Part shown: in pieces, positions 1,581 to 25,331 of the stretch
How positions within the stretch are numbered: the stretch's first letter is position 1
Layout of the letters: the number at the start of each line of letters is the position of its first letter
Source of the DNA: a virus
Length of the DNA stretch: 37,907 nt
Virus record (IMG/VR): IMGVR_UViG_3300012931_000046
Span: 1-37,907 of that record
Direction: 5' to 3' (one strand)
The notes under the pieces: model-generated
Seen by the model: only the letters and a program-made list of their open reading frames with translations
Told to the model about the DNA's origin: nothing
Databases searched by the model: none
Translations under genes and position numbers: made by a program

Positions 1581-1608
1581 TTGACGAGTTGACTGGACGT
1601 TGTATAAT
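1581..1608 (+). promoter_or_regulatory. Sigma70-type promoter before 1617
   Basis: The -35 box TTGACG at 1581-1586 and a perfect -10 box TATAAT at 1603-1608 are separated by 16 nt. The start codon at 1617 lies 8 nt beyond the -10 box, so the mRNA would have almost no leader. Confidence 0.75.
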
Positions 1609-1616
1609 TAAGATGT

Positions 1617-1940
1617 ATGAAAATATATAGAAAAGAAGATAAGATTATTTTTGAAGAAGATTTTTTTCAAAAAAGAAGTAATCCTTATATGGAAGGAGAA
1701 GATGTTGGCTCTTACCCAACTTATGTTGGATTGCTTTATAAAGACAGATGGGGAAATGATAAGATAGGATTTGCTCACGTAATTGATATGGATTACAAAG
1801 ATAAATCAGACCAATGGACTGATATTGTGATTGAATATCAAGGAATTGAAAAAGATTTTAAAAAACTTTGTGAAGATTTAAAGATTGGATATGTAGATGA
1901 AAGATTATCAGACAGAAACGTGAATTTTCAAGAGGATTAG
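1617..1940 (+). CDS. Hypothetical protein with its own promoter
   Basis: A 107-residue acidic soluble protein (MKIYRKEDKIIFEEDFFQKR at the start) with aromatic and charged stretches such as YVGLLYKDRWGNDKIGFAHV and VIEYQGIEKDFKKLCEDL. No family is recognised. It sits between the fibre-linked genes and a structured RNA and has a strong-looking promoter, so it may be expressed apart from the late operon, as phage accessory (moron) genes are. There is no signal peptide or membrane span. Confidence 0.7.
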   Translation: MKIYRKEDKIIFEEDFFQKRSNPYMEGEDVGSYPTYVGLLYKDRWGNDKIGFAHVIDMDYKDKSDQWTDIVIEYQGIEKDFKKLCEDLKIGYVDERLSDRNVNFQED

Positions 1941-1954
1941 CACATTTAAAATAA

Positions 1955-2245
1955 GTTAGTGGATAGAATAGTGAAGCAAAGTAAGTTGAAAACCAGAAAT
2001 GGGGGGCGAGATGTCGCTCATCTTTAAACAGCCCTGTTCAACTAATCTGTATAGCTAAGTGCCAACAAAGAATTTGGCTTTGGTATTAACTGTGGTGGGG
2101 AAATGCCACCGAAAATCCAGGATATATTAATACCGAGATTTACAGAGGTGAAAGTCCTTTAAGTAGTCGTAGCTGGTGACCCGTATTCTTCGGGATATGG
2201 AACAATTCCTTATAAACGCTATGCTTTACTATCTTGTCCACTAAC
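1955..2245 (+). ncRNA. Large structured RNA candidate R1 (about 291 nt)
   Basis: Ends 1955-1977 and 2223-2245 can form a 23-bp closing helix with three G-U pairs and one mismatch. Inside it, perfect short helices nest: 1984-1990 with 2037-2043; 2047-2051 with 2141-2145, which encloses 2061-2065/2074-2078 and the 8-bp 2082-2089/2127-2134; within the latter 2094-2098/2106-2110; then 2180-2183/2191-2194 and 2199-2202/2206-2209. No long ORF is present. This explains almost the whole 320-nt gap. I do not recognise the family; group I intron core sequences were not found. It could be a 3' UTR of the gene at 1617, an independent RNA, or the leader of the HNH gene. Confidence 0.65.
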
Positions 2246-2260
2246 ATAAAGGAATCTAAA

Positions 2261-2494
2261 ATGGCAAGAAAACGTTTTATGACAAAACACCATTTGTTTC
2301 CTGTTTCTCGTTTTAGCCGTAAGAGAAACAAACAAACTATTACCCTTGATTGGGAACGCCATCACGAGCACTGGCACGCTTTATTTGGAAATCTATCCAT
2401 ATTTGAAGCCATTGAGGTTTTGAAGAGGATAGCCGAACACAAAGAAATAAAAGGAGGTGAGATATGCAAAATACTCTTGATACCACCGAAGTGA
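2261..2494 (+). CDS. Small HNH-type nuclease
   Basis: About 77 residues starting MARKRFMTKHHLFPVSRFSR. The His pairs in KHHLFPVSR and the later ERHHEHWHALFGN match the pattern of small phage HNH (beta-beta-alpha metal) proteins: an HH block, a linker strand, then H..WH with Asn. ATG 2261 is preferred; ATG 2234 is in frame but falls inside the 3' arm of RNA R1. It overlaps the next gene by 31 nt. It may be a homing-type nuclease or a packaging-associated nuclease; the former fits the other selfish nucleases here. Confidence 0.7.
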   Translation: MARKRFMTKHHLFPVSRFSRKRNKQTITLDWERHHEHWHALFGNLSIFEAIEVLKRIAEHKEIKGGEICKILLIPPK

Positions 2495-2962: not shown

Positions 2963-3118
2963 TATCTGGTTGCCGAAATCCTGTCTATTGGACTAGGTGA
3001 GAGTGCCTACGCACGAAACGAGTACCTAATACGGCTCACCCCGCAAGGGGATTAGACTATCTGGGGACTTTAACCCAAAGGCTGAAAAGCAAAATAGTTT
3101 GCAGGGCGTCCCCAGATA
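2963..3118 (+). ncRNA. Intergenic structured RNA candidate R3
   Basis: A perfect 11-bp helix joins 3058-3068 with 3108-3118 and encloses a hairpin GCAAA/TTTGC. Upstream, GGTGAG 2996-3001 can pair with CTCACC 3035-3040, GTGC 3003-3006 with GCAC 3011-3014, and CCCC 3039-3042 with GGGG 3047-3050 around a GCAA tetraloop. TATCTGG at 2963-2969 repeats the 5' arm at 3058, so CCAGATA at 3112-3118 has two possible partners; one would close the whole element. No ORF of note lies inside. Confidence 0.6.
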
Positions 3119-3134
3119 ATAAAACCGTAAACCT

Positions 3135-3266
3135 ATGCAAGTAATACAAAAGTGTAAACACTGCAAAAAAGATTTTAAACAAACAAATAAAAACAACACT
3201 GTTTGTTTAAAATGTTATTTAGGCATTAAAAGATACGGAACATTAAAAAAATATAATTGTAAATGA
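3135..3266 (+). CDS. Zinc-ribbon miniprotein
   Basis: 43 residues starting MQVIQKCKHCKKDFKQTNKN with two CxxC knuckles (C7/C10 and C24/C27), the signature of a small zinc ribbon. It is lysine-rich, so nucleic acid binding is plausible. Its stop overlaps the start of the next peptide at 3263. Confidence 0.6.
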   Translation: MQVIQKCKHCKKDFKQTNKNNTVCLKCYLGIKRYGTLKKYNCK

Positions 3267-3343
3267 CAACATTAAACTTTATTATTCTACTTTTTAGCAT
3301 AATAGTAGTTATAGCGTTGTTTTATGCAACAAATTTATGGTAA
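3263..3343 (+). CDS. 26-residue single-span membrane peptide
   Basis: Starts MTTLNFIILLFSIIVVIALF and is almost entirely one hydrophobic span, ending YATNLW. It overlaps the genes on both sides (ATGA at 3263; ATGG at 3337), which supports real translation by coupling. Being directly before a peptidase, holin-like protein and lysin, it may be a small lysis factor. That role is inferred from position. Confidence 0.55.
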   Translation: MTTLNFIILLFSIIVVIALFYATNLW

Positions 3344-4155
3344 ACATTTTAGAAAAAGGTAAAGGTTGCCTTATCAAAGAACCATCAATAACAGATTATA
3401 GACTTGAAGTAATGCCAGTTAAGGCAACCGTTTTGCCGACTTCGTATTCTGTTGAAGATAAACTTAGTTCTCAAAAAGACCAGGGAGCAAGTAGTAGTTG
3501 TGTTGGACAGGGTTTTGCTTATTACTTAGAAGTTTTAAATAAAATTGAAACTGGTAACAATGTAGAACTTTCGGCAAGAGATAATTACTCAAAGATTTTC
3601 TTATCAGGAGGTGGAGCATATTTAGTAGATGCTTGTAAAAAGATTAAAAATCAAGGTTGTGTAATTGAAAAAGATGCCACAAGCTATGAAAATGGAGCAG
3701 AGCCATCTGAAAAGTTTATGCGAACAAGAGATGATATTACTTCCTCAGAACAAGACAATGGAATGACATTTTTAGCTAAGAGTTATTTTACGATGTCTTC
3801 TACAGTAGCTAACATTAAACGTGCTATTTATGAGGGTAATGGTTGTTGCGTGGCTTGCACAGGAGATAATGCAGGCTGGCAGACAGCAGATATTCAGTTG
3901 CCAAAATCGAATGATTGGGGGCATTGTGTGTTTTTAACAGGTTATGATGACACAACAAAGAAGTTTAAATTTAAAAACAGCTGGGGCAAAGAATGGAGAG
4001 ATAATGGAAGTGGATATTTGCCTTATGAATATGTAGAGAAAGGGTTTGTTTCTAATGCCTATGTTTTAGTAGATGCTTCTAACAGTTATTACACCTCGCT
4101 ACTTTCAATTATAGAAAACTTAAAAAATAAAATTAAAGAATTATTAAAAATATGA
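3337..4155 (+). CDS. Papain-like (C1 family) cysteine peptidase
   Basis: A 272-residue protein with the papain triad in order: the oxyanion Gln and nucleophile in QKDQGASSSCVGQGF (Q49, C55), the His in DWGHCVFLTGYDD (H196), and the Asn in FKFKNSWGKEW (N214). This matches peptidase family C1A; there is no obvious propeptide or signal peptide. Its first codons overlap the membrane peptide and its last codons overlap the holin-like gene (ATGA), placing it within the lysis cassette. It may cut cell-wall crosslinks or envelope proteins, or process a virion protein. A C1 peptidase in this setting is unusual. Family assignment is firm; role is inferred. Confidence 0.88.
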   Translation: MVNILEKGKGCLIKEPSITDYRLEVMPVKATVLPTSYSVEDKLSSQKDQGASSSCVGQGFAYYLEVLNKIETGNNVELSARDNYSKIFLSGGGAYLVDACKKIKNQGCVIEKDATSYENGAEPSEKFMRTRDDITSSEQDNGMTFLAKSYFTMSSTVANIKRAIYEGNGCCVACTGDNAGWQTADIQLPKSNDWGHCVFLTGYDDTTKKFKFKNSWGKEWRDNGSGYLPYEYVEKGFVSNAYVLVDASNSYYTSLLSIIENLKNKIKELLKI

Positions 4156-8542: not shown

Positions 8543-9288
8543 AAATTAAAGATATAATAAATAAAGTCCACTGTGCAGATTGTTTGGAATTTATGAAACA
8601 AATCCCTGATAAAAGTATAGACCTTGTGCTGACAGACCCGCCGTATGGGATAACAGCGTGTAAGTGGGATAATGAATTAAATTTTACTAACTTTTGGAAA
8701 GAAACAAAAAGAGTAATAAAAGAAAATGGAGCAATTTTAGTTTTTGGAACTGAACCGTTTAGTAGCAAATTGAGGATTAGTAATTTAGATATGTTTAAAT
8801 ATGATTGGATATGGCACAAGTCTATTCCAACGGGAATGATGTCGGCAAAATATATGCCAATGAAAAATCATGAGATAATATCTGTTTTTGGAAATAAAAT
8901 AAACTTTTATCCGCAAAAAGAAGAACGAAGTAAAAATACTCACAGAACAGGACAAGGTAAAATATACATAAATAATTCAGAACATAACAAAGGATTTTCT
9001 GTTATTAGGAAAGAACCGCCAGAATTAAGGAATCCAACAACTGTAAGGTATTTTCCAAATGTGGCAAGGCACAATTCCAAACACCCAACACAAAAGCCAA
9101 CTTCTCTTATGGGATACTTAATAAAAACATACAGCAACGAAAACGATACTATCCTTGACCCCTTTCTCGGCTCTGGCACAACTTGTGTGGCGGCTAAACA
9201 ATTAAAGCGTAATTATATCGGTATTGAAATTAGTCCCAAGTATTGCCAGATTGCCAAGCAACGGCTACGGCAGGATATATTGTTGTAG
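8536..9288 (+). CDS. DNA methyltransferase (DPPY class)
   Basis: A 250-residue protein with motif IV DPPYG at residues 34-38 and the AdoMet-binding motif I DPFLGSGTT at 208-216, the motif order of beta-class N6-adenine or N4-cytosine methyltransferases. It probably modifies phage DNA against host restriction. No partner restriction gene is present. Base composition changes within the gene: from about 9130 the 3' end is richer in G+C than the first two thirds. A second, AT-rich copy of the last 33 residues lies after the LAGLIDADG gene (9725-9826), suggesting that this 3' end was replaced. Confidence 0.9.
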   Translation: MLEIKDIINKVHCADCLEFMKQIPDKSIDLVLTDPPYGITACKWDNELNFTNFWKETKRVIKENGAILVFGTEPFSSKLRISNLDMFKYDWIWHKSIPTGMMSAKYMPMKNHEIISVFGNKINFYPQKEERSKNTHRTGQGKIYINNSEHNKGFSVIRKEPPELRNPTTVRYFPNVARHNSKHPTQKPTSLMGYLIKTYSNENDTILDPFLGSGTTCVAAKQLKRNYIGIEISPKYCQIAKQRLRQDILL

Positions 9289-9326: not shown

Positions 9327-9725
9327 ATGAAAACAACATTTGCATATATCGCTGGCTTCATAGACGGCGAAGGTTATTTAGGATTAGCGGTCAGGAAAAA
9401 TTCTTTTAAGGCAAGGTTAATGATTTCAAACTGCAACCTTGAATTATTAAAACATATCCAAAAGATAATCGGTGGGTATATTAGTAAAAAGTCAAAACGA
9501 GATGGCTGGACACAAGGATACAATTTAACCGTAGGTTATCTTGAAACTTGGTTGCCCGAAGTCTTACCATATTTAGTCGGGAAAAAGGAGAAGGCAAAAT
9601 TACTTTTAGAAGCGACAAAACTTTTGAACGAAAGAAAAAAGAAAACAAATATGGCTGGCGATTTGAACTTAAAAAGATTGCAAGAGATAAACTTATTATT
9701 GAGAAAAAAAGAATGGTTAATTTAG
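9327..9725 (+). CDS. LAGLIDADG homing endonuclease
   Basis: A 132-residue protein. YIAGFIDGEGYLG at residues of about 7-19 is the LAGLIDADG motif with the catalytic acidic residue, followed by the expected fold (LMISNCNLELLKHIQKIIGG and a basic strand region). One motif only, so it should act as a homodimer. It lies between the intact methyltransferase and a duplicated methyltransferase tail, pointing to invasion of the methyltransferase gene close to its GSGTT motif. It has its own promoter, independent of the host gene. Confidence 0.9.
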   Translation: MKTTFAYIAGFIDGEGYLGLAVRKNSFKARLMISNCNLELLKHIQKIIGGYISKKSKRDGWTQGYNLTVGYLETWLPEVLPYLVGKKEKAKLLLEATKLLNERKKKTNMAGDLNLKRLQEINLLLRKKEWLI

Positions 9726-10786: not shown

Positions 10787-11536
10787 ATGAAACTAAATCA
10801 AATATACAATGAATTAGAAACAAGTTCGTCTAGTCAGTTTTCAAATGGAAGTGGCACTATAAATTCAAATTGGGGAGTAATGTCAGCTAATCCAACTTGG
10901 AACAGTGATACTAAAAAAGTAAATATAACAACAAAGATAGTAAAGTGGTTAGGTTTATATGTAAAAACAAAATTTACAGAAATTGAACCAGAAGTATTCT
11001 TTGACACTCTCAAAAGAAATAAAAAAGAAGTTAAAATTATAGATGGTATAGTAGATAAATATTTAATTAGTATTAAAAAAGCAGAACAGTTTGGACAAAT
11101 TGCACTTGCAGAGAAAATGAAAGACGAAATTGAAGTTGTTAAAAAAGAGGCATTAGCAGTAGTAAATGGCGTAAAAGAATATTTAACTGAACAACAAGTA
11201 GATAAGTTAATGAAGAAATCCAGTAAAAATATAGAAATAGATAATATCAAAAACTTTGTTAGACATTTACCAGAAAACTTAATTGAGAAAGTAGAGAAAT
11301 TAAAAAAAGATAATGTTTTTGATAGTTATGTAATAATGCATTACGACCCTAAAAAAGAGAATACAGAATTGACTAAAAAAGAAAAATCGAAGAAGAAAGA
11401 CCCTATACTTTTCGGCTTAATAAAAGGTTCTCGTAATTTATATTTTATAGGCGATTGGGTTGATGAATATTGTGATTTAACTTTAAAAGAAGCAGTAGCA
11501 ATAATTGAGGATAAAACTAAAAAGATTATTGCCTGA
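10787..11536 (+). CDS. Hypothetical protein
   Basis: A 249-residue, lysine- and glutamate-rich protein. The N-terminal 60 residues are Ser/Asn-rich (SSSSQFSNGSGTINSNWGVM), the middle looks helical, and the end (KDPILFGLIKGSRNLYFIGD and on) resembles an alpha/beta module. There is no recognised motif, membrane span or signal peptide. It is the largest unassigned gene of the early region and is preceded by GAGGATAAAGAAGTTA, also seen before 9841. The family is unknown to me. Confidence 0.75.
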   Translation: MKLNQIYNELETSSSSQFSNGSGTINSNWGVMSANPTWNSDTKKVNITTKIVKWLGLYVKTKFTEIEPEVFFDTLKRNKKEVKIIDGIVDKYLISIKKAEQFGQIALAEKMKDEIEVVKKEALAVVNGVKEYLTEQQVDKLMKKSSKNIEIDNIKNFVRHLPENLIEKVEKLKKDNVFDSYVIMHYDPKKENTELTKKEKSKKKDPILFGLIKGSRNLYFIGDWVDEYCDLTLKEAVAIIEDKTKKIIA

Positions 11537-12662: not shown

Positions 12663-12802
12663 AAAGTAATCTATTTATGGGGGGTAGCGTATAGTTAAAA
12701 ACTTAATCTATATGATTTGGAAGTATAGATGCACTAATAGCATTCCAACCGCTAAATTATTGGTGTAAACCCTTTCTTCCCCCGTCACAAGTAGATTACT
12801 TT
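12663..12802 (+). ncRNA. Structured RNA R7 with its own promoter (about 140-150 nt)
   Basis: A closing helix pairs 12663-12676 with 12789-12802 (14 bp, one G-U). Inside are a G6/C5 helix (12679-12684 with 12779-12783), TAGCG 12685-12689 with CGCTA 12750-12754, and a hairpin with TTGGAA 12717-12722/TTCCAA 12743-12748 and ATGC/GCAT. No ORF lies inside. The family is not recognised. Confidence 0.65.
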
Positions 12803-16857: not shown

Positions 16858-16860
16858 AAG

Positions 16861-16963
16861 GTAGTCGGTTACTTTGAGGAGGTGGATTGGAGTATTCCAG
16901 TCGGCGTATGTTCACTACGCAAAAAGATTGAAACCTTACCTCCTCTTCAAAATAGCCGATTAC
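16861..16963 (+). ncRNA. Structured RNA candidate R9
   Basis: The ends 16861-16883 and 16938-16963 form a long interrupted helix (GTAGTCGG with CCGATTAC, TTTGA with TCAAAA, GAGGAGGT with ACCTCCTC). Inside are hairpins TGGA/TCCA near 16888-16899 and GCGTA/TACGC at 16904-16920. It contains a GGAGG core that could mimic or hide a ribosome site. The next gene starts at 16986. Confidence 0.6.
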
Positions 16964-16985
16964 TTAAGCAAACTAAATAAACATT

Positions 16986-17147
16986 ATGATAAACATTATA
17001 CATCACGAGGAGTTAGAAAATCATAAAATAGTTAGGGATTATTATTCAATCTCAGATGATAAACAAATTTATGGTTTTAAATTTAGCAAAGAAGAACTCA
17101 TTGAGTTGAGAGAGAAGTTGAATGAGCTTGACAAGAAGTTTTGTTAA
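16986..17147 (+). CDS. Small hypothetical protein
   Basis: 53 residues starting MINIIHHEELENHKIVRDYY, ending in a charged helix (EELIELREKLNELDKKFC). It stands between two folded elements. No family recognised. Confidence 0.5.
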   Translation: MINIIHHEELENHKIVRDYYSISDDKQIYGFKFSKEELIELREKLNELDKKFC

Positions 17148-17171
17148 ATGGTAAACTTAATATATATTAGT

Positions 17172-17222
17172 CTTGTGAACAACGATAGCACACTACTCAC
17201 AAGGCGGTGTGCTTTCATTGTT
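17172..17222 (+). ncRNA. Interleaved-helix leader R10
   Basis: Helix A pairs CTTGTGA 17172-17178 with TCACAAG 17197-17203. Helix B pairs 17178-17193 with 17207-17222 at 14 of 16 positions. There is no linker between A5 and B5, so the two cannot both be complete; B is stronger and would displace A. The HNH gene starts at 17230, 7 nt later. Confidence 0.6.
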
Positions 17223-17229
17223 AAAATAA

Positions 17230-17565
17230 ATGAATAAAAATGATATATTAAGAATAAGCAAAACTGGAAATAAAGTTTGGTTAAAGAATGGTAGTATATT
17301 AAATACAAATAAATTAAATAGGAATCTTTGGGTTACAAGAAAAAAGAAAATAAATTATGTTAATAAATATATATATTATACACCTATACCAAAAGAATTA
17401 AAAAAACAAATTCTTAAGAGAGATAATTATCAATGTCAAATTTGTGGACAAAAAGAACATATAGCAATTCACCATTTCGATGGTAGCAGGATGAATAATA
17501 CTTATTGGAATTTATTAACTGTTTGTCCTTGTTGTCATAGACTTATCCACGCAGGATATTTTTAA
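17230..17565 (+). CDS. HNH endonuclease
   Basis: A 111-residue protein. The C-terminal half has the full motif: LKKQILKRDNYQCQICGQKE, then HIAIHHFDG (catalytic HH), NTYWNLLTVCPCCHRLIHAG with the Asn, second CxxC and His. The basic N-terminal 50 residues could bind DNA. Phage HNH enzymes of this kind lie near terminase genes and may aid packaging, or act as homing nucleases. It has interleaved-helix leader R10. Confidence 0.85.
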   Translation: MNKNDILRISKTGNKVWLKNGSILNTNKLNRNLWVTRKKKINYVNKYIYYTPIPKELKKQILKRDNYQCQICGQKEHIAIHHFDGSRMNNTYWNLLTVCPCCHRLIHAGYF

Positions 17566-23760: not shown

Positions 23761-24627
23761 ATGACAACGACAGGTACAAATACAATAGGTTCAACAGCTT
23801 ATAGAACAAAATTTAAATCAGCTATGTTGCAAGAGGTATTAAGAAATGCCCTTGTAGCTGAAAAGATTTGTGAAGTTGATAATTCAGACAACTACACAAT
23901 CAAGAACCCTTATGGTTCAAATCCAACAGTCCAAATTACAGGATTGACTGGAACATACACAGTAGACGACTACACAATTACAGACGACACATTAACTGTA
24001 ACTGATGAGTTTAAAGCAGCAGAACACGTTTATGACTTTGAAGACGTGCTTTCTAACTATGACTTGTTTTATAACAGGACATACAACCAAATGCAGGCAG
24101 TTAGAGAGGAAATTGATAGCTTCATTCTAAACAACCTTTGTGAAGACGGAACAGGAACATATTCAACACCATCAGGAGGATTTACAACAGCCGCTAACAT
24201 TAACGTTATCCTTTCAAATTTACTTTCAAAGGTAGCAGGATATTCTGAGGTATACAAAGGATTATTCTTAGTGTTAGAGAACACAGACGTTACAGGATTG
24301 ATTCAAGCTCAAATGACTAATGGATATTCTTTTGCTGATGCAGCTTTAAACAATGGTTTGTTAACTCATCAAGCAGGAGTAGACATTTATGTCGTAAGAA
24401 CAGGAACATTTGCAAGTGAAACTGTTGGAACAAAGACTTACTCAAATTCAGGACACAGAGTATTCGGTGTCAAAAACGTTGCAACTTATGCTGCACCAAG
24501 AGGAGTAAAGTTTGAAGAGAAAGCAGTTTCAGGAAAGACTGGAATGGAATGTGTAACTTATGGATATATCGGTTTCAAATTGTGGGCCCAAAAAGCCGCT
24601 TTGATTGTTGATATTACCATAGTCTAA
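23761..24627 (+). CDS. Major capsid protein
   Basis: A 288-residue protein with an N-terminal helix (TAYRTKFKSAMLQEVLRNAL), a beta-rich core (VQITGLTGTYTVDDYTITDD), a long helix (NRTYNQMQAVREEIDSFILN) and the loop-rich end TYAAPRGVKFEEKAVSGKT. This fits the order of an HK97-fold coat protein. It follows the scaffold gene and is followed by hairpin element R12. Confidence 0.85.
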   Translation: MTTTGTNTIGSTAYRTKFKSAMLQEVLRNALVAEKICEVDNSDNYTIKNPYGSNPTVQITGLTGTYTVDDYTITDDTLTVTDEFKAAEHVYDFEDVLSNYDLFYNRTYNQMQAVREEIDSFILNNLCEDGTGTYSTPSGGFTTAANINVILSNLLSKVAGYSEVYKGLFLVLENTDVTGLIQAQMTNGYSFADAALNNGLLTHQAGVDIYVVRTGTFASETVGTKTYSNSGHRVFGVKNVATYAAPRGVKFEEKAVSGKTGMECVTYGYIGFKLWAQKAALIVDITIV

Positions 24628-24633
24628 TATTAA

Positions 24634-24707
24634 CTCTCCCTATGGGGAGAGATTGGTAACTCACTCTTACCACCAATAGTGGGTTACCGTTTTCTCCCCG
24701 TTAGGGG
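24634..24707 (+). terminator. Three-hairpin element R12 after the capsid gene
   Basis: CTCTCCC 24634-24640 pairs with GGGAGAG 24645-24651. GGTAAC 24655-24660 pairs with GTTACC 24683-24688 and encloses CCAC/GTGG (24670-24682); a GTTTTC tract follows. CCCC 24696-24699 pairs with GGGG 24704-24707. The middle hairpin with its T-rich tail could attenuate transcription after the abundant capsid message. The next start is at 24717. Confidence 0.55.
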
Positions 24708-24716
24708 TAAATAACT

Positions 24717-25132: not shown

Positions 25133-25150
25133 TATTTTTGTCAATCAAAA

Positions 25151-25222
25151 CAAGAACAAATTAACCTCGTGGTTCTTGCTCCCCATTATCTTTACTCACG
25201 AGGTTGGGTAATTGGGGGCAAG
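25151..25222 (+). ncRNA. Multi-state leader R13 with three competing helices
   Basis: Helix A pairs AACCTCGTG 25163-25171 with CACGAGGTT 25197-25205 (9 bp, perfect). Helix B pairs 25175-25188 with 25209-25222 (13 of 14 including one G-U). Helix C pairs CAAGAAC 25151-25157 with GTTCTTG 25172-25178. A and B interleave; C conflicts with B. The membrane peptide start follows at 25233. Confidence 0.62.
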
Positions 25223-25232
25223 GATATATAAT

Positions 25233-25331
25233 ATGAGATTTTTAACCGAAGAACTAAACTTAATTCAAGTTTGTAAATTGTTAGGAGGGATAATAATAGT
25301 AATACTTTTATATCTTATATGGAAAAAATAG
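25233..25331 (+). CDS. 32-residue membrane peptide
   Basis: Starts MRFLTEELNLIQVCKLLGGI and continues IIVILLYLIWKK: one hydrophobic span with a basic end. It overlaps the next gene by 13 nt. It follows leader R13. Confidence 0.5.
   Translation: MRFLTEELNLIQVCKLLGGIIIVILLYLIWKK

What the first reader, a model, noticed from the sequence alone, without database searches (positions are those of the whole stretch)
1955..2245. Large multi-helix RNA closed by a 23-bp helix next to an HNH gene
The 291-nt stretch has a 23-bp closing helix and at least seven nested perfect helices, with no significant ORF. I could not match it to a known class. It lies between a promoter-driven orphan gene and a small HNH nuclease, so it may be a new phage noncoding RNA, or a mobile element whose ends are the inverted repeat.
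Basis: seen in the sequence. Interest (0 to 1): 0.72.

Follow-up and report, generated by a model that had tools for sequence, protein, structure and literature searches.

The report
Helix-closed RNA before a phage gene
A 291-base stretch between two phage genes very probably folds, as RNA, into a structure closed by a long helix just before the next gene's start; no relative of this RNA was found, but the phage's relatives carry many unlike-sequence elements of the same build at gene starts, so it is most likely a processing or leader element of the phage messenger RNA.

Summary
The stretch 1955-2245 is really there: 12 bp + one A/C mismatch + 11 bp (3 G-U pairs) close a 243-nt interior. The closing helix is far beyond chance; the interior alone is not (z about -1). 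It matches no Rfam family, and blastn, a single-sequence covariance model and DNA patterns found no homologue, so covariation cannot be tested. The HNH label of the next gene rests on a motif only; that gene's distant relatives lack the RNA.

The context is new. In about 100 loci of phages related through the terminase, intergenic DNA holds 59 long closing helices against 3-4 in shuffles. Their non-Watson-Crick pairs are G-U rather than A-C on the coding strand (117:51; a control set 17:20), so pairing is kept at the RNA level. 46% end within 40 nt upstream of an ATG (random 14%). This RNA, 15 nt before an ATG with a Shine-Dalgarno sequence, fits that class. I read it as a structured intergenic mRNA element, most likely of the RNase III-site kind with an unusually large interior. 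The leader reading is supported for the class; RNase III is inferred. Mobile element, intron and HEARO readings are not supported.

The parts
1955..1978 (+). 5' arm of the closing helix (12 bp, unpaired A1967, 11 bp)
2222..2245 (+). 3' arm of the closing helix (11 bp, unpaired C2233, 12 bp)
1979..2221 (+). interior, predicted multi-branched: 1984-1990/2037-2043, 2003-2007/2031-2035, 2061-2065/2074-2078, 2080-2089/2127-2136, 2093-2098/2106-2111, 2144-2148/2156-2160 (loop UGAAAGU), and a possible UUCG hairpin 2181-2200 (only about 10% in the ensemble)
   Evidence: alone not more stable than shuffles (z -1.05)
2246..2260 (+). 15-nt spacer with Shine-Dalgarno-like AAAGGA (2248-2253) before the next start codon
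   Evidence: sequence
2261..2494 (+). 77-aa protein with an HNH-like motif (assignment weak)
1617..1940 (+). upstream 107-aa orphan gene
1581..1608 (+). strong sigma70-like promoter (TTGACG-16-TATAAT, 11/12) that would read through the orphan gene, the RNA and the HNH-like gene
2963..3118 (+). another structured intergenic stretch ending 16 nt before the ATG at 3135
   Evidence: z -2.5
12663..12802 (+). element of the same kind, about 140 nt, helix-closed (20 bp, 2 mismatches)
16859..16965 (+). element of the same kind, 107 nt, closing helix 13 bp + 1x1 + 10 bp, ending 20 nt before the ATG at 16986

Best explanation
The stretch is an intergenic RNA element inside a phage polycistronic mRNA. 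The transcript from the promoter at 1581-1608 runs through it. The long closing helix forms, walls off a folded interior, and ends 15 nt before the start codon of the next gene. It belongs to a class of helix-closed elements, alike in build and not in sequence, that this phage group keeps between genes, often directly upstream of start codons. The most likely mechanism is processing and insulation: the roughly two-turn closing helix is cut by a host double-strand RNase of the RNase III type, freeing the downstream message with a clean 5' end and releasing the interior. Shown: the helix, its strand preference, the class, and its position at gene starts. Inferred: transcription, cleavage, and the effect on stability or translation of the downstream gene.
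For: Closing helix beyond every shuffle; whole element z -5.4 on the + strand, -2.7 on the other. Related phages: 59 long closing helices in 66 kb of intergenic DNA against 3-4 in dinucleotide shuffles, found with a strand-neutral score; G-U 117 versus A-C 51 on the coding strand, per-helix sign test p 1e-4; control bacterial loci show no bias (17:20). 46% of helices end within 40 nt of an ATG of an ORF of 40 aa or more, against 14% for random intergenic positions; 34% against 7% at 5-25 nt. Interiors of the class are structured on average (mean z -1.09, s.e. 0.26, n=30). A stricter scan (20 bp or more, at most one mismatch) gives 17 helices in 127 kb, 0 in shuffles. One position of this phage (25133-25318) keeps overlapping inverted repeats in relatives L002 and L005 with different sequence. 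[quoted passage not shown]
Against: No homologue, so no covariation for this RNA itself. No transcript or cleavage data. T7 sites are 60-nt hairpins, not 291-nt multi-branched structures. The interior alone is not significantly stable. The control set for the class is small, and some class members are clearly other things (a tRNA-Leu, tRNA-like RNAs, terminator-like hairpins).
Confidence: 0.42

Rival explanations
1. A free-standing phage noncoding RNA: the closing helix is the maturation stem (as in rRNA precursors) and the 243-nt interior is the functional product.
For: Large multi-branched predicted fold on one strand; some class members in related phages are clearly RNA products, for example tRNA-like RNAs with extended acceptor-like stems.
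Against: Interior z only -1.05; no homologue by blastn, covariance model or patterns; not a member of the tRNA-like family by a descriptor test.
Confidence: 0.27
2. A cis-regulatory leader (translational operator or riboswitch) of the gene at 2261: the fold changes on binding a protein or ligand and opens or shuts the ribosome-binding site.
For: Position 15 nt before the start codon with the Shine-Dalgarno sequence just outside the helix; many class members sit at start codons. T4 gene 32 has a pseudoknot operator 67 nt upstream of its start codon (PMC3014915).
Against: The Shine-Dalgarno sequence is unpaired in the local fold of 1940-2260; no conserved aptamer is visible, as sequences differ between the elements.
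Confidence: 0.15
3. A DNA mobile element (MITE-like) whose ends are the inverted repeat.
For: Exact 4-bp direct repeat ATAA on both sides (1951-1954, 2246-2249); chance about 0.7%.
Against: No second copy in the window or in any collection searched; 12 other elements of the class show no evident flanking repeat; the class shows RNA-level pairing selection on the coding strand.
Confidence: 0.05
4. A group I/II intron remnant or an IscB/HEARO-type omega RNA served by the HNH-like protein.
For: Size and neighbourhood of an HNH-like gene.
Against: No Rfam match at E<=10 over 1940-2260; the protein is 77 aa, whereas HEARO ORFs carry RuvC plus HNH (PMC9755519); protein relatives occur in other surroundings without the RNA.
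Confidence: 0.03
5. A chance inverted repeat in AT-rich intergenic DNA.
For: Interior not significant; no homologue found.
Against: Score never reached in 100 shuffles; class enrichment about 15-fold.
Confidence: 0.05

Closest known systems
RNase III processing sites of phage T7 early mRNA (for example R1.1)
   Same: Intergenic, upstream of a gene, long imperfect helix on the mRNA strand
   Different: R1.1 is a 60-nt RNA; here the helix closes 243 nt of predicted multi-branched RNA; cleavage not tested
T4/T2/RB69 gene 32 leader pseudoknot
   Same: Structured RNA in a phage mRNA leader
   Different: That is a compact pseudoknot 67 nt upstream that binds gp32; here a large helix-closed element 15 nt upstream, with no known ligand
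ROOL and GOLLD phage RNAs
   Same: Large structured phage RNAs
   Different: Much longer, conserved families with Rfam models, often near tRNA islands; no match here and no tRNA in the window
HEARO / omega RNA of IscB and IsrB
   Same: About 300 nt, upstream of an ORF with an HNH motif
   Different: No Rfam match; partner protein far too small and without RuvC

Membership tests
RNase III processing site of phage mRNA | about 20 bp or more of RNA helix on the transcribed strand | tested here: met
   23 bp with one mismatch; three G-U and one A-C on the coding strand
RNase III processing site of phage mRNA | intergenic, in a polycistronic transcript | tested here: inconclusive
   lies between two genes of one strand with a promoter-like site upstream; no transcript data
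RNase III processing site of phage mRNA | cleaved by RNase III | not testable with these tools
   needs in vitro cleavage or 5'-end mapping
HEARO / omega RNA | match to the RNA model | tested here: not met
   cmscan at E<=10 gave nothing
HEARO / omega RNA | adjacent ORF with RuvC and HNH domains | tested here: not met
   77-aa protein, no RuvC
Group I or group II intron | match to Rfam intron models | tested here: not met
   divergent introns could still be missed
MITE-like element | more than one copy with the same ends | tested here: not met
MITE-like element | target-site duplication | tested here: inconclusive
   ATAA on both sides, chance about 0.7%; not evident in the other elements
tRNA-like RNA family of related phages (L105, L109, L139) | GGCGGAAnAGGUAGACGC and GCRRGG-UGACUA...CAAAU-CCYYGC pairing | tested here: not met
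   window has GGUGA...CAAUUCC with 2 flanking pairs only, as several chance sites do
Helix-closed intergenic elements of this phage group (defined here) | long closing helix, span 60-420, in intergenic DNA, coding-strand G-U, end near a start codon | tested here: met

The most novel reading that the evidence does not exclude
This phage group punctuates its mRNAs with dozens of sequence-unrelated, helix-closed, internally folded RNA elements at gene starts, a general post-transcriptional system of which the 291-nt element is the largest seen in this window; some of the elements have become stable RNAs in their own right, such as tRNA-like RNAs.
Probability: 0.3. Interest if true: 0.72.

Novelty: new variant of a known kind. 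Interest (0 to 1): 0.48.

Why it matters
If the class reading holds, RNA structure conserved in build and position but not in sequence marks gene starts across a group of uncultivated phages. Family-by-family RNA searches that rely on sequence homology would miss it. It makes a question testable: do these phages cut or cap their messages at such helices, and does the host's RNase III do it?

Tried and rejected
Rfam at gathering and at E<=10: nothing. blastn of the RNA in 50,697 phage and 72,556 plasmid records, in 50 related phage records and in 380 genomes of the phylum of a Woesebacteria bin: nothing beyond short matches (the two best read). Single-sequence covariance model R1 over the fetched loci: nothing. 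Patterns around GGTGAAAGTCC and GTCGTAGC in viral contigs: the matches look like chance matches in coding DNA. A 19-nt motif shared with a helix-closed element of phage L030 looked promising, but a viral scan found it otherwise only outside such elements, so I treat it as chance. A central position of the mismatch in the closing helices looked striking at first but was not significant in an unbiased scan (7 of 15, expected 5.3). Membership in the tRNA-like family was tested and rejected. HNH relatives did not lead to the RNA. Structure prediction of the HNH-like protein was too poor to use.

Full report
What was checked. The window is an uncultivated virus record of 37,907 bases with phage terminase and portal-like genes; the genes around the finding all read on the + strand. 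The stretch 1955-2245 lies between a 107-aa orphan gene (1617-1940) and a 77-aa gene (2261-2494) with an HNH-like motif. The closing helix is 12 bp, one A/C mismatch, then 11 bp, with three G-U pairs. Under one scoring scheme it reaches 47; the best in each of 100 dinucleotide shuffles of the whole window was at most 40. The whole element folds to -94.3 kcal/mol, z -5.4, and the reverse complement only to -70.7.

No known family. Rfam gives nothing at gathering thresholds over the window and nothing at E<=10 over 1940-2260. No tRNA or tmRNA is present. blastn found no relative among phages, plasmids, related phage records or 380 genomes of one bacterial phylum. A covariance model built from the single sequence found nothing in the fetched loci.

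The HNH neighbour. The small protein has no Pfam or NCBIfam match above cut-off; PHROG 3467, of unknown function, is a weak hit. Two distant relatives in related phages sit in other surroundings, and the covariance model finds nothing there. The association with the RNA looks incidental, apart from the RNA lying in that gene's leader.

The class. Because the window holds further helix-closed intergenic stretches (12663-12802, 16859-16965, and structured gaps at 2632-2767, 2963-3134, 24628-24716, 25133-25318), I asked whether this is a habit of the phage group. About 100 loci of related phages (terminase identity about 60-76%, plus further pieces of the same records and a few genome-bin contigs) were split into genes and intergenic segments. 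With a score that treats G-U and A-C alike, 59 long-range closing helices appear in 66 kb of intergenic DNA, against 3-4 in shuffles. On the coding strand the imperfect pairs are G-U 117 times and A-C 51 times. Per helix, 35 lean to G-U and 9 to A-C (p 1e-4). Genome loci from Dysgonomonas and others give 13 helices with 17 G-U and 20 A-C. Selection for pairing thus acts on the sense RNA in the phage group. The helices end within 40 nt upstream of an ATG in 46% of cases against 14% for random intergenic positions. Their interiors are on average more stable than shuffles (mean z -1.09, s.e. 0.26). A stricter scan gave 17 helices in 127 kb, none in shuffles, 2 in 44 kb of control. The element of this finding has the same build: it ends 15 nt before an ATG, with AAAGGA in between.

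Mechanism. A long helix on the mRNA strand, placed between genes and just before a start codon, is what RNase III sites of phage T7 look like (R1.1 lies between genes 1.0 and 1.1, PMC6121014; [quoted passage not shown] I therefore hold processing/insulation of the message as most likely. The large folded interior is the main departure, and it leaves room for a released functional RNA or a regulated leader, as the gene 32 pseudoknot of T4-like phages is (PMC3014915). Cleavage, transcription and any effect on the downstream gene are inferred.

Rejected readings. The mobile-element idea has one point in favour, an exact ATAA on both sides (chance about 0.7%), but no second copy, no evident repeats at other elements, and the RNA-level bias of the class against it. 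Intron and HEARO readings fail on Rfam and on the partner protein (HEARO ORFs carry RuvC and HNH, PMC9755519). The possible likeness to a tRNA-like family found on the way was tested and is at chance level.

Limits. Gene calls are simple ORFs; the control set is small and mixed; the class includes unlike things, among them a tRNA-Leu and terminator-like hairpins. The statement about this single RNA leans on the class, not on its own conservation.

Noticed in passing
L139:738-932 (-), L105:13030-13218 (-), L109:4781-5009 (+), probably L014:1098-1246 (+) and L016: A family of 150-230-nt tRNA-like RNAs in related phages and a likely prophage: long closing helix, tRNA-Leu-like D-arm TGGCGGAAnAGGTAGACGC, and GCRRGG-UGACUA...CAAAU-CCYYGC with two compensated pairs in the first three members. 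ARAGORN finds no tRNA there, and Rfam found nothing in L105 and L109 (L139 and L014 not scanned). It looks like a tRNA T-arm split by an inserted stem.
   Followed up: partly
L046:7262-7530 (+), L037:815-1052 (+): Helix-closed RNAs of about 255 and 240 nt that contain an ordinary-looking T-arm (GCAGGTTCGAATCCTGC; GCAAGTTCGACTCTTGC) but are not recognised as tRNAs by ARAGORN.
   Followed up: partly
window 25133-25318; L002 about 9075-9190; L005 about 11370-11450: Overlapping inverted repeats b-c-b'-c' (AACCTCGTG / CACGAGGTT and others) at the same place before a small gene downstream of the capsid-like gene, with different sequences in relatives; the two helices exclude each other or form a pseudoknot.
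   Followed up: partly
window 17170-17222: CTTGTGA..GCACAC..TCACAAG..GTGTGC, the same overlapping-repeat arrangement, directly before the gene at 17230.
   Followed up: no
window 24634-24707: A very stable long hairpin directly after the gene at 23761-24627, probably the capsid gene (z -6.4).
   Followed up: no
window 9327-9725: A protein containing AYIAGFIDGEGYLGLAV, which looks like a LAGLIDADG homing endonuclease.
   Followed up: no
window 3337-4155: A papain-family cysteine protease (Pfam Peptidase_C1, E 1e-8) next to a lytic transglycosylase-like gene; it seems unusual for a phage.
   Followed up: no
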